Source: Synechococcus sp. JA-2-3B'a(2-13) (GTDB lineage: Bacteria > Cyanobacteriota > Cyanobacteriia > Thermostichales > Thermostichaceae). From it: a stretch of DNA of 64,000 bases. Positions 9,629 through 14,869 of the stretch are shown here, in pieces; position 1 is the first letter of the stretch; every line of letters begins with the position of its first letter. The DNA is taken from NCBI RefSeq assembly GCF_000013225.1, contig NC_007776.1:949277-1013276 (forward strand), read 5' to 3'. Both the position numbers and the translations under genes were made by a program. The notes under the pieces are model-generated. The model worked only from the letters and a program-made list of their open reading frames with translations. It searched no databases and was not told the origin of the DNA.

Positions 9629-10858
9629 ATGGCACGCGCTAAGTTTGAACGCACCAAACCCCATGTCAACGTTGGCACCATCGGCCATGTTGACCACGGC
9701 AAGACCACCCTGACGGCTGCCATCACCACCACCTTGGCTGCTTTGGGTCAGGCCACAGCCAAAAGGTACGATGAGATCGACGCAGCGCCAGAGGAAAAAG
9801 CTCGCGGCATTACCATCAACACCGCCCACGTCGAGTATCAGACTGCCAACCGTCACTACGCCCACGTGGATTGTCCCGGCCACGCCGACTACGTGAAGAA
9901 CATGATCACAGGCGCGGCTCAGATGGATGGGGCCATCTTGGTGGTGTCTGCAGCTGATGGTCCCATGCCCCAAACACGGGAGCACATCCTGTTGGCCCGT
10001 CAGGTAGGGGTGCCCAGCTTGGTGGTCTTTCTGAACAAGGCAGACATGGTGGACGATCCAGAGCTGCTGGAGTTGGTGGAGCTGGAAGTGCGGGAGCTTC
10101 TCTCCAAATACGACTTCCCCGGCGACGACGTTCCCATCATCAGAGGATCGGCGCTGAAAGCCCTAGAAAGAATGACCGCCAACCCCAAAACCCAGCGGGG
10201 CGAAGATCCTTGGGTGGACAAAATTTATGAGCTGATGGATGCGGTGGACTCCTACATTCCCACGCCGGAGCGGGATGTGGACAAGCCCTTCCTGATGGCT
10301 GTGGAGGATGTCTTCTCGATTACTGGTCGGGGCACGGTGGCCACGGGCCGGATCGAGCGGGGCCGCATCAAAGTGGGCGAAACGGTGGAATTGGTGGGCC
10401 TGCGGGAAACTCGCTCCACCACTGTTACTGGCCTGGAAATGTTCCAAAAAACCCTCGATGAGGGGATCGCCGGCGACAACGTTGGTGTGCTGTTGCGCGG
10501 CATTCAGAAGAACGAAGTGGAGCGCGGCATGGTGCTGGCCAAGCCCAAGACCATTACTCCCCACACCAACTTCGAGTCTGAGGTGTATGTCCTCAAGAAA
10601 GAGGAGGGAGGTCGCCACACGCCCTTCTTTGCCGGCTATCGTCCTCAGTTCTATGTGCGCACCACCGATGTAACCGGCACCATCTCTTCCTTCACGGCTG
10701 ATGACGGATCCCAGCCAGAGATGGTGATGCCTGGTGACCGCGTTAAGATGACGGTGGAGCTGATCCAGCCCATCGCCATTGAGCAGGGGATGCGCTTTGC
10801 TATCCGCGAGGGTGGCCGTACTGTCGGAGCGGGTGTTGTCTCCAAGATCCTGAAGTAA
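9629..10858 (+). CDS. tuf: Elongation factor Tu
   Basis: A GTPase that delivers aminoacyl-tRNA to the ribosome. [17 protein letters not shown] and NKADM define the G domain, and domains II and III follow over 409 residues, the usual cyanobacterial length. A GGAAG run precedes the ATG. It is the fourth gene of the str operon. The 124-base gap after it carries a strong inverted repeat with a T run, so tuf and rpsJ may be partly uncoupled in transcription. Confidence 0.98.
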
Positions 10859-10869
10859 GCGGCTTTTTC

Positions 10870-10950
10870 CTGGCAGGGATTGAGTGCCGACGGCCCCAGA
10901 CCAACTCAGTTGCGATAGTGGCGCGGAGCACTTTCCCTGCCAGCTTTTTT
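10870..10950 (+). terminator. Long-range inverted repeat plus T run between tuf and rpsJ
   Basis: CTGGCAGGGA (10870-10879) and TCCCTGCCAG (10934-10943) are perfect 10-base complements, followed at once by CTTTTTT. The 54-base segment between the arms can itself pair (TGAGT at 10881-10885 with ACTCA at 10904-10908). The layout resembles an intrinsic terminator or attenuator with a branched loop. Since rpsJ lies downstream, partial read-through would be expected. Confidence 0.6.
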
Positions 10951-10982: not shown

Positions 10983-11300
10983 ATGCCTACCTTGACTCAA
11001 CAGAAAATTCGCATCCGCCTGAAGGCTTACGATCATCGGCTGCTGGATACTTCCTGCGACAAAATCGTGGATACGGCTCGTCGTACCGACGCCGTGCCGG
11101 TTGGCCCGATTCCTTTGCCTACTCGGCGCCGCATCTACTGTGTGCTGCGCTCCCCCCACATCGACAAGGACTCGCGGGAACATTTTGAAACCCGCACCCA
11201 CCGGCGCATTATCGACATCTATTCCCCCTCTTCCAAAACCATCGATGCTCTCATGAAGCTGGATCTGCCGGCAGGGGTAGATATCGAGGTGAAGCTGTGA
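10983..11300 (+). CDS. rpsJ: 30S ribosomal protein S10
   Basis: A 105-residue small-subunit protein, also the NusE antitermination factor in other bacteria. It shows the family core [33 protein letters not shown] and the [22 protein letters not shown] block. In cyanobacteria this gene commonly closes the str operon instead of opening the S10 operon, which fits its place after tuf. It follows the inverted repeat described above. Confidence 0.98.
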
Positions 11301-11364: not shown

Positions 11365-12282
11365 GTGACAACATCGGTTGATCCGGTCGATCGCGATAGT
11401 GGTGCAGACCCCTCTCAGGGGTTGGCAACTCCAGGAGCGGCCCAATCCCCCATCCCGGTTTTGGTGGTGGGGGCCCTGGGCAAAATGGGGCGAGAGGTGG
11501 TGCGAGCCGTTGCCGAGACGCCCGACATGAGGTTGGTGGGGGCGGTGGCCCGCTCGCAATTGGGCTTGGACATTGGCGAGGTGCTGGGCCTGGGATCCCT
11601 GGGGGTGGAGATTACCGATGACTTGTCGGGGCAGTTGCTGAGGTTGTCGCAGCGGAGCAACCGCGGCGTGATGGTGGATTTTACCCATCCTTGGTCGGCA
11701 TTTGAACATGTTCGCTCGGCCATTGCCTTTGGCGTGCGTCCGGTGGTGGGGACGACGGGCCTGACGCCGGAGCAGGTGGAGCGGCTGCGGGATCTGGCGG
11801 ACAAGTCGGGTGTGGGCTGTTTAATCGCGCCCAATTTTGCCATCGGCATGATTTTGCTGCAGCAGATGGCGCTGCAGGCGGCCCAGTATTTTGACCATGT
11901 CGAGATCATCGAGCTGCACCACAACCGCAAAGCGGATGCCCCCAGCGGCACGGCTCTACAGACGGCCCAACGGCTGGGACAATTGGGCAAAACCTTTAAC
12001 CCGCCCGTTCGCGACAGCGGGACGGAGTCCTCAGTGGAAGAAAAAGAGCTGATCCCCGGTGCGCGGGGAGGGCTCTCTGGCCCCAACATTCCCATTCACA
12101 GCGTTCGTCTGCCGGGGTTGATCGCCCATCAGGAGGTCATTTTTGGTGGGATGGGGCAAACCCTCACCTTGAGACACGACACCACGGATCGGATAGCTTT
12201 TATGCCGGGAGTGATCCTGGGGATCCGCAAGGTGCTGCAGCTCAAAGGTTTGGTCTACGGGCTGGAGCAAGTGTTGAGCTAG
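11365..12282 (+). CDS. dapB: 4-hydroxy-tetrahydrodipicolinate reductase
   Basis: An NAD(P)H-dependent reductase of lysine and diaminopimelate synthesis. The nucleotide-binding motif is [13 protein letters not shown] after an unusually long, Ser/Pro/Ala-rich N-terminal lead of about 30 residues. The catalytic block [15 protein letters not shown] is intact. The start is a GTG; the true start could be further downstream. Bases 12007-12030, coding for the RDSGTESS stretch, match a short dispersed repeat found elsewhere in the window. That segment sits in a surface region where insertions are tolerated. The stop codon overlaps the convergent MetF-like gene by four bases. Confidence 0.95.
12007..12030 (+). 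repeat. Dispersed palindrome-type repeat, copy inside dapB
   Basis: A 24-base segment, TTCGCGACA then core GCGGGACGGAGTCC, that recurs with small changes at 13679-13702 (inverted), 42024-42045 and 43194-43213 (inverted). Here it is in frame inside dapB. Confidence 0.6.
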
Positions 12283-13273: not shown

Positions 13274-14869
13274 TCAAGGCTTGGGCGAGGGAAGGGGGCT
13301 GGGCGGGGGCTGCACCCGCATTTCCCCCAGCCATATCTGGGGATCCCCCTGTTGCAGATGCTGCCGCCAATCTTGTGCGGCTGCAGGAGGGATCCCGTCC
13401 GGGCTTAAAGTCCAGCTCCAGCCGATCACCTGAGGCCAGCGCTGCGCCTCCAGACCTTCCAGCAGCGGTTGAGAGGTTGCTGAGCCCGGAGCCGGCCCGC
13501 GGATCACCACAGGCACTTTCGGGTTGAGGGCCTCAAGGCGGCGGTACAGCGGTTCAAAAGCGGCGGGATCCCCCGTTACCTGTAGGCTCAGCCAGTCCAT
13601 CTCAGGGAACCGAGCCCAGGTGGACACGGCCTTGGCATCTTCTCCGTCCAGCTCCACCACCCAGAGCAAATTGGCCGGGGACTCCGTCCCGCTAACGCGA
13701 ACAGAGCGCAGGGTTTGCATCAGGTGTTGGTAAGCCCGTTGTTGCAGCGAGGACTCCGTCCCACCAAAGGGCTCCCCACCGCTACCGCGAGCGCGTTCGG
13801 GATCCCCGTCGCCAACAACGACGGCCAGGATGATGGGGGTGGCAAAGCGCTGGATCCCGCGGGCCCAAGAGCGCAAGGTCTCATCGTGATCCCCATTGGC
13901 CAAGGCAGAAAGTTGGGCCGGATCTAGCCGCAGGCGCAGGTAGGGGACTGAGCCGCTTTCCCGCAGGCGACTGGCCAACTGCTGCGGAAAGTCCTGGCGG
14001 GGATCCCAGAGGTGATCCACGGCTGCCCAGGCGGGGGGCTGACCAATGGCCTGGCGATAGGCGAGGAGTTGATCCCAAGTGGGAATGCCCGGCCAAGCGA
14101 CCCCGTGATACAGCCGACCCGGAGGTGGCGGCAGCGGCCTACCCCGCAGAAAGGGGGCGGAATCGGGTGGGATCGGCGAGGTGAGAACAACCTCCAGCCG
14201 CAGCGGCGGCAAGACCTCACCGGCAGGGGGATGCGGCAGGGAGAAAGGGAGGATCCAACTGCGCTCCTGGAACTGGCCTCGGATGATCTGCTGAGGGTGA
14301 AAGTCCTGGGGAGGTGGCAGCGGTTCCAGCGGGTCTTCCCCCCAGAAAGCCCGTTGGATTACCAAGCGCACCCCTGCGCCGGGGTGGATCAGAGGCGTGG
14401 TGGTATCCAGGTGAAAGCTACCCCTGAGGCGGGTGGACGTCTCATTGGGCTCAACCCGGAAGGAGAAGGTGATCTGGTCAGATCGGTAGGTGCCTGGAGC
14501 GGGGGAAGCAGTGGGGGGCGGGGATCCCGGTAGGCTTTCGCAGTCGGTGCAGGGAAAAATGGCCTGCGGATGGAGCGAAACGGGAGCCTCGCGGGCGGAT
14601 TGCAGTTGCTCAGCAGTGATGACAAAACTGGCCCAAAGGTGTTTCAGACGGGGCTCCCGACCAGGCTGAATATCGGAAAAGGATCGGCCTTCGGGAGTGG
14701 CCGTCCGCGTGCCGACAGCAGCGCCATCCAGAGGGACTGTAGAAACCGGGTCGTCAGCACATCCCCCCAAAAAACCAACCGACAAAATCAGCAGCAGCGC
14801 CCAGCCGCAAGTGCTCCGCACCGCTACCGCGACCCAGGGGTCGAGTTTGCAGTTGGATGGCTGGATCAT
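13274..14869 (-). CDS. Predicted lipoprotein with a degenerate GH26-like barrel
   Basis: A 531-residue exported protein. A hydrophobic signal segment (WALLLILSVGFLGGC) ends in a lipobox-type LGGC, so a lipid anchor is likely. Residues ~40-250 form a beta-rich, Pro-rich region. From about residue 250 (VAWPGIPTWDQLLAYR) the spacing recalls glycoside hydrolase family 26: PAWAAVDHLWDPR, RFATPIILAVV, ANLLWVVELD, WLSLQVTGDP, PVVIRG and QVIGWSWTL. At the positions where GH26 enzymes have the HEMNG acid/base and the EFG nucleophile, this protein reads GDGDPERA and RGPAPG. If the assignment is right, it is probably a non-catalytic sugar-binding relative. Three copies or halves of a dispersed repeat lie within this gene. 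Confidence 0.6.
   Translation of the reverse strand: MIQPSNCKLDPWVAVAVRSTCGWALLLILSVGFLGGCADDPVSTVPLDGAAVGTRTATPEGRSFSDIQPGREPRLKHLWASFVITAEQLQSAREAPVSLHPQAIFPCTDCESLPGSPPPTASPAPGTYRSDQITFSFRVEPNETSTRLRGSFHLDTTTPLIHPGAGVRLVIQRAFWGEDPLEPLPPPQDFHPQQIIRGQFQERSWILPFSLPHPPAGEVLPPLRLEVVLTSPIPPDSAPFLRGRPLPPPPGRLYHGVAWPGIPTWDQLLAYRQAIGQPPAWAAVDHLWDPRQDFPQQLASRLRESGSVPYLRLRLDPAQLSALANGDHDETLRSWARGIQRFATPIILAVVVGDGDPERARGSGGEPFGGTESSLQQRAYQHLMQTLRSVRVSGTESPANLLWVVELDGEDAKAVSTWARFPEMDWLSLQVTGDPAAFEPLYRRLEALNPKVPVVIRGPAPGSATSQPLLEGLEAQRWPQVIGWSWTLSPDGIPPAAAQDWRQHLQQGDPQIWLGEMRVQPPPSPLPSPKP
13679..13702 (-). repeat. Dispersed repeat, copy inside the lipoprotein gene
   Basis: GGACTCCGTCCC followed by GCTAACGCGAAC is the inverted form of the dapB copy at 12007-12030, matching at 20 or more of 24 positions. 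It is located in the minus-strand lipoprotein gene, in frame. Confidence 0.6.
13751..13792 (-). repeat. Dispersed repeat, split copy
   Basis: GGACTCCGTCCC (13751-13762) and CCGCTACCGCGAGC (13779-13792) are the two halves of the repeat, separated here by 16 bases. A third half-copy, CCGCTACCGCGA, is at 14821-14832 in the same gene. Confidence 0.5.

What the first reader, a model, noticed from the sequence alone, without database searches (positions are those of the whole stretch)
10870..10950. 10-base long-range inverted repeat with T run before rpsJ
The arms CTGGCAGGGA and TCCCTGCCAG are perfect and end at CTTTTTT, but the loop is 54 bases and itself foldable. This is an unusual terminator shape. 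It could be an attenuator that sets S10 level apart from EF-Tu, or a feedback site for a ribosomal protein.
Basis: partly seen in the sequence, partly recalled or inferred. Interest (0 to 1): 0.55.

Follow-up and report, generated by a model that had tools for sequence, protein, structure and literature searches.

The report
Repeat-enlarged terminator between tuf and rpsJ
A hairpin and T-run between the genes for EF-Tu and ribosomal protein S10 in a cyanobacterium look like a leaky stop signal for transcription, whose loop is long because a tiny 24-base mobile repeat landed inside it.

Summary
The inverted repeat is real and at the stated coordinates, but it is not a simple stem with a 54-base loop. 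All six genomes of the genus carry a hairpin plus T-run in the tuf-rpsJ gap; four have a compact stem. In the window genome and its nearest relative (G004), a 24-nt dispersed repeat sits inside the ancestral 3' arm, and its GCACTT pairs with GAGTGC to make a new inner stem. Best reading: a leaky intrinsic terminator that lets less RNA into rpsJ than into tuf (inferred; no expression data). Strong hairpins with T-runs occur in 33 of 58 tuf-rpsJ gaps against 12 of 58 rpsG-fusA gaps. No protein-feedback site is seen in the hairpin. But 48 of 50 genomes outside the window's family carry a boxA-like motif 6-46 nt before rpsJ, the same motif as in 16S rRNA leaders. BoxA is the site of NusB with S10 itself (NusE), which suggests S10 autoregulation in a phylum reported to lack Rho. 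The window's family (8 of 8) lacks this site at rpsJ. The papers searched gave no report of it for cyanobacteria.

The parts
9629..10858 (+). tuf (EF-Tu), gene before the hairpin
   Evidence: ORF of 409 aa
10870..10879 (+). 5' arm of the outer stem, CTGGCAGGGA, 11 nt after the tuf stop
10882..10887 (+). 5' arm of the inner stem, GAGTGC
10910..10933 (+). 24-nt dispersed repeat inserted inside the ancestral 3' arm; its last six bases (GCACTT, 10928-10933) form the 3' arm of the inner stem
   Evidence: 38 matches with up to 3 mismatches in the genome, control 0; absent from four of six genus members at this site
10934..10943 (+). 3' arm of the outer stem, TCCCTGCCAG
10944..10950 (+). CTTTTTT, U-tract of the terminator-like hairpin
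   Evidence: T-run also follows the stem in the other five genus members
10983..11300 (+). rpsJ (ribosomal protein S10, NusE), gene after the hairpin
   Evidence: ORF of 105 aa; matches in 8 of 8 family genomes

Best explanation
It is an intrinsic-terminator-type hairpin placed inside the str operon between tuf and rpsJ. RNA polymerase leaving tuf partly terminates at the T-run, so EF-Tu mRNA exceeds S10 mRNA, and the read-through fraction supplies rpsJ. The ancestral hairpin was compact. In the common ancestor of the window genome and G004 a 24-nt dispersed repeat inserted into its 3' arm, leaving the outer 10-bp stem and the T-run intact; the end of the repeat pairs with the old 5' inner arm, so the hairpin stayed strong. 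Shown: hairpin, T-run, presence throughout the genus, filled against empty sites. Inferred: termination, its partial nature, and the effect on S10 level.
For: Hairpin plus T-run in 6 of 6 genus members, each better than 100 of 100 shuffles. 33 of 58 tuf-rpsJ gaps hold a hairpin of -15 kcal/mol or better beside a T-run, against 12 of 58 rpsG-fusA gaps; 51 of 73 readable gaps of 80 named loci. No + strand consensus promoter in tuf or the gap. Repeat; empty sites; re-pairing 6 of 6 in the filled and 5 of 6 in the empty forms. Same unit in frame in another gene, 1, 4, 0 and 0 copies in G000, G004, G003 and G007. Rho not found above cut-off in 8 of 8 family genomes.
Against: No expression data. 25 of 58 gaps fail the hairpin threshold, and the window's own rpsG-fusA gap also scores -16.3. 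Covariation in the genus is weak: 3 of 15 pairs changed on both sides, reached by 56 of 500 shuffles. The consensus scan cannot exclude an unusual promoter for rpsJ.
Confidence: 0.66

Rival explanations
1. A complete terminator for tuf; rpsJ is transcribed from its own promoter within the 3' part of tuf or the gap.
For: Strong stem and T-run. In many other cyanobacteria the hairpin is about 100 nt or more from rpsJ, leaving room for a promoter.
Against: Only 33-46 nt lie between hairpin and rpsJ in the genus; no consensus promoter on the + strand there.
Confidence: 0.17
2. An RNA 3'-end protector or processing site: the hairpin blocks exonucleases after cleavage, so tuf RNA outlives rpsJ RNA without termination.
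For: A long stable hairpin right after a highly expressed gene fits. PMC13289151 (passages) names cleavage followed by selective stabilisation as a possible source of non-canonical 3' ends.
Against: The T-run directly after the stem in all six genus members is expected for termination and not needed for protection.
Confidence: 0.12
3. A binding site for a ribosomal protein (S10 or another) that regulates rpsJ by feedback through the hairpin itself.
For: Position before rpsJ; outer-stem sequence conserved in the genus.
Against: Loop and inner part differ between genus members and tolerated a 24-nt insertion; no Rfam family reaches its cut-off in the window; hairpin sequences change freely across the class.
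Confidence: 0.04
4. Chance or a neutral inverted repeat.
For: 7 of 200 shuffles of the 94-nt stretch fold as well; 2 of 50 shuffled windows hold a comparable repeat with a T-run.
Against: Kept at the same place in 6 of 6 genus members.
Confidence: 0.01

Closest known systems
Canonical intrinsic (Rho-independent) terminator, including partial terminators inside operons
   Same: GC-rich stem followed at once by a run of T; within the stem-loop plus U-tract definition of PMC7843447 (passages).
   Different: Lies inside an operon 39 nt before the next gene, and the stem is 74 nt long with an inserted repeat instead of a short loop.
Small dispersed repeats (SDR, 21-27 nt) of Nostoc and relatives (Elhai et al. 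2008; recalled, the paper is not held)
   Same: Very short (24 nt), dispersed in many copies, found in tandem and at filled sites with empty counterparts in relatives.
   Different: Different organism group; sequence and structure could not be compared with the published families.
BoxA-mediated autoregulation of Nus factor genes (suhB in E. coli; putative for rpsJ in three gammaproteobacterial genera; PMC5725501, passages and Discussion)
   Same: In other cyanobacteria a boxA-like motif lies 6-46 nt before the gene for NusE (S10).
   Different: Found here in 48 of 50 sampled genomes of the class outside the family, in a group reported to lack Rho; absent at rpsJ in the window's family.

Membership tests
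Intrinsic terminator | GC-rich hairpin directly followed by a U-tract in the transcript | tested here: met
   Stem 10870-10943, T-run 10945-10950; same form in 6 of 6 genus members
Intrinsic terminator | RNA polymerase releases RNA at the U-tract | not testable with these tools
   No RNA 3'-end data or in vitro assay
Intrinsic terminator | Pairing kept by compensatory changes in relatives | tested here: inconclusive
   94.4% of cells paired, 3 of 15 pairs changed on both sides, but 56 of 500 shuffles reach that
Small dispersed repeat (SDR-like) | Short unit (21-27 nt by recall) dispersed in many copies | tested here: met
   24-nt spacing of tandem pairs; 38 matches at up to 3 mismatches, control 0
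Small dispersed repeat (SDR-like) | Mobility, seen as filled and empty sites in relatives | tested here: met
   tuf-rpsJ gap: filled in G000 and G004, empty in G003, G005, G006, G007; second gene with 1, 4, 0 and 0 copies in G000, G004, G003 and G007
Small dispersed repeat (SDR-like) | Sequence or fold of a named SDR family | not tested
   The defining paper is not held
BoxA autoregulation of rpsJ/nusE | BoxA motif close before the rpsJ start in the window genome | tested here: not met
   Best match in the window's gap has weighted mismatch 4.3; absent in 8 of 8 family genomes
BoxA autoregulation of rpsJ/nusE | BoxA motif close before rpsJ in other Cyanobacteriia, equal to the rRNA boxA | tested here: met
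   48 of 50 genomes; same motif in 19 of 20 readable 16S leaders and both of the window genome
BoxA autoregulation of rpsJ/nusE | NusB-S10 binds the leader and represses rpsJ | not testable with these tools
   NusB is encoded in 8 of 8 family genomes; binding and repression need an experiment

The most novel reading that the evidence does not exclude
In nearly all Cyanobacteriia, S10 (NusE) with NusB binds a boxA placed just before the rpsJ start codon and shuts off its own translation, downstream of a leaky tuf terminator. This would couple S10 supply to rRNA boxA demand in bacteria without Rho. The window's family lacks this boxA and keeps only the terminator, which in two genomes absorbed a 24-nt mobile repeat as part of its stem.
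Probability: 0.5. Interest if true: 0.62.

Novelty: new member of a known kind. Interest (0 to 1): 0.45.

Why it matters
How a cell makes far more EF-Tu than S10 from one operon is a basic question of stoichiometry; a leaky terminator at the tuf-rpsJ junction is a direct answer that one RNA 3'-end map would test. The boxA before rpsJ in most cyanobacteria gives a concrete hypothesis for what NusB-S10 does in a group where Rho, the usual opponent of the boxA complex, is reported absent. The filled and empty sites show how a mobile element of only 24 bases can enter an RNA hairpin and be absorbed into its stem.

Tried and rejected
Rfam scan of the window: no family at its cut-off. No tRNA or tmRNA gene in the window. 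The first MAFFT alignment did not place the 24-nt insertion as one gap, so pair counts were made on trimmed arms. GCGATAGTGG looked at first like a separate local element; it proved part of the 24-nt repeat. I considered that the boxA might antiterminate the hairpin; rejected, because in all 27 genomes outside the family that have both, the boxA starts downstream of the hairpin. Of 20 genomes sampled from other classes of the phylum, 1 of 20 had a weak boxA-like match (L196, score 1.6) and none a better one. The N-terminus of the second gene gave no readable comparison for G005 and G006. In L079 (G001) the tuf frame was misread, so its gap includes tuf sequence and its hairpin score of 0 is unreliable; locus L012 gives that gap as 121 nt. 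The hairpin scan demands a T-run close to four T in five, so genomes such as L029 with a stem and only three T count as lacking it; the 33 of 58 is then a low estimate.

Full report
Observation. The two perfect 10-base arms lie at 10870-10879 and 10934-10943, 54 bases apart, followed by CTTTTTT at 10944-10950. The gap runs from the tuf stop (10858) to the rpsJ start (10983). It is the only perfect 10-bp inverted repeat with a following TTTTT on the + strand of the window; 2 of 50 shuffled windows had one. The fold extends the stem inward: after a two-base bulge, GAGTGC (10882-10887) pairs with GCACTT (10928-10933). The 54-base loop is therefore largely structured.

Why the loop is long. Bases 10910-10933 are one copy of a dispersed repeat. 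A 24-base query close to it has 38 matches with up to 3 mismatches in the genome, and 0 for the reversed-pattern control. The 17-base core with up to 2 mismatches has 127 matches in the window genome (G000), 127 in G004, 95 in G007, 25 in G003, 18 in G006, 9 in G005, 4 in G002 and 0 in G001; controls were 0 except 1 in G002. These counts include a second recurring sequence (AGCGGCGCGGAGCGCTT) that may be a different element. Twenty-three aligned copies from 20 fetched stretches share about 28 positions, and two stretches hold head-to-tail pairs exactly 24 bases apart.

Filled and empty sites. All six genus members have a hairpin and T-run in the tuf-rpsJ gap. G003, G005, G006 and G007 lack the repeat and have a compact stem of the type GGCAGGGATTGAG ... 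CTCAATCCCTGCC followed by T's. G000 and G004 carry the repeat between CTC(A/G) and TCCCTGCC, inside the ancestral 3' arm, a net gain of 24 bases (my reading). The repeat's GCACTT pairs 6 of 6 with GAGTGC in both filled genomes and 5 of 6 with the corresponding bases of the four empty ones. One C-to-T difference thus goes with the insertion; this is a single event and only suggestive. A second gene (13274-14869, minus strand) shows the same unit in frame: one copy in G000, four tandem copies in G004, none in G003 and G007.

Is the hairpin conserved as a terminator? I fetched 57 further tuf-rpsJ regions: 50 of the same-class genomes outside the family that one search listed, picked by hand for spread, and the 7 other family genomes. 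With the window, 33 of 58 gaps hold a hairpin of -15 kcal/mol or better beside a T-run, and 30 of 58 are matched by at most 2 of 100 shuffles. The rpsG-fusA gap of the same regions gives 12 of 58, Fisher p about 1e-4. By group, 27 of 50 outside the family and 6 of 8 inside it pass. In the named GTDB loci 51 of 73 readable gaps pass, out of 80 loci; this set overlaps the first. Against: the window's own rpsG-fusA gap scores -16.3, and 25 of 58 tuf-rpsJ gaps fail. Within the genus, 94% of cells are paired but covariation is weak: 3 of 15 pairs changed on both sides, which 56 of 500 shuffles reach.

How it probably works. The hairpin begins 11-15 nt after the tuf stop in the genus and ends 33-46 nt before rpsJ. 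The consensus scan shows no + strand promoter in tuf or the gap. If rpsJ is to be expressed, polymerase must then read through, so a leaky terminator is the simplest account; it would set S10 mRNA below EF-Tu mRNA. A ribosome at the tuf stop may also cover the base of the 5' arm and modulate read-through; this is speculation. Rho was not found above cut-off in 8 of 8 family genomes; the best weak matches lie in open frames of about 480 residues that look like ATP synthase subunits (my reading). PMC13289151 (outline, abstract and passages read) reports that cyanobacteria lack Rho and that 22% of transcription units in S. elongatus end at canonical intrinsic terminators; tuf and rpsJ do not occur in its main text.

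A boxA-like site in other cyanobacteria. While reading the gaps I saw a shared motif, GAACCTNGANAA, just before rpsJ. It is present (weighted mismatch 1.6 or less, a threshold set after seeing the motif) within 60 nt of the start in 48 of 50 genomes outside the family; composition-shuffled sequence gave 13 of 10000. It ends 6-46 nt before the start codon, median 15. In the named loci it is present in 73 of 79 readable ones. It is absent in L064, L068 and all 8 family genomes. The same motif stands before 16S rRNA in 19 of 20 readable leaders; 30 genomes were asked, 21 gave a 16S gene and one of these had too little upstream sequence. The window genome keeps it in both rRNA leaders, 133 nt before AGAGTTTGAT. 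By position and sequence this is the rRNA boxA; that the cyanobacterial boxA reads GAACCTTGAAAA is also my recall. BoxA is the RNA site of NusB with S10 (NusE), as stated in PMC5725501 and PMC10931766 (passages). PMC5725501 shows boxA-dependent repression of suhB in E. coli and lists putative boxA before rpsJ in three gammaproteobacterial genera (passages and Discussion); the word cyanobacteria does not occur in its main text. Paper searches with boxA and cyanobacteria terms listed no paper whose title or abstract start describes this for cyanobacteria; apart from passages of PMC10931766 I did not open the papers that they listed.

Verdict. The odd loop is a 24-nt repeat insertion. The feedback idea is not supported at the hairpin, but the same junction in most other cyanobacteria holds a plausible S10 feedback site, which the window's family lacks. 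The host is recalled to be Synechococcus sp. JA-2-3B'a from its 3,046,682-base genome; no tool named it.

Noticed in passing
rpsJ leaders of 48 of 50 sampled Cyanobacteriia outside the family (e.g. L027, L036, L045): A boxA-like motif identical to the 16S rRNA leader boxA lies 6-46 nt before rpsJ, the gene of the boxA-binding protein S10 (NusE); the window's family lacks it.
   Followed up: yes
window 14809-14832, minus strand, within ORF 13274-14869: Another copy of the 24-nt repeat lies in frame in a coding sequence; the orthologue in G004 has four tandem copies, and G003 and G007 have none.
   Followed up: partly
window 11391-11408: A partial copy of the same repeat (TCGCGATAGTGGTGCAGA) near the start of the gene after rpsJ, which I read as dapB.
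   Followed up: no
G000, places listed: A second recurring sequence, AGCGGCGCGGAGCGCTT, occurs in many copies in G000 and G003 and may be a separate repeat or part of a transposon.
   Followed up: no
L110 and L111 (G000:C1:1428800-1429800 and 604900-605700): Two CRISPR arrays (Rfam CRISPR-DR57) hold repeats that resemble the boxA search pattern, probably by coincidence.
   Followed up: no
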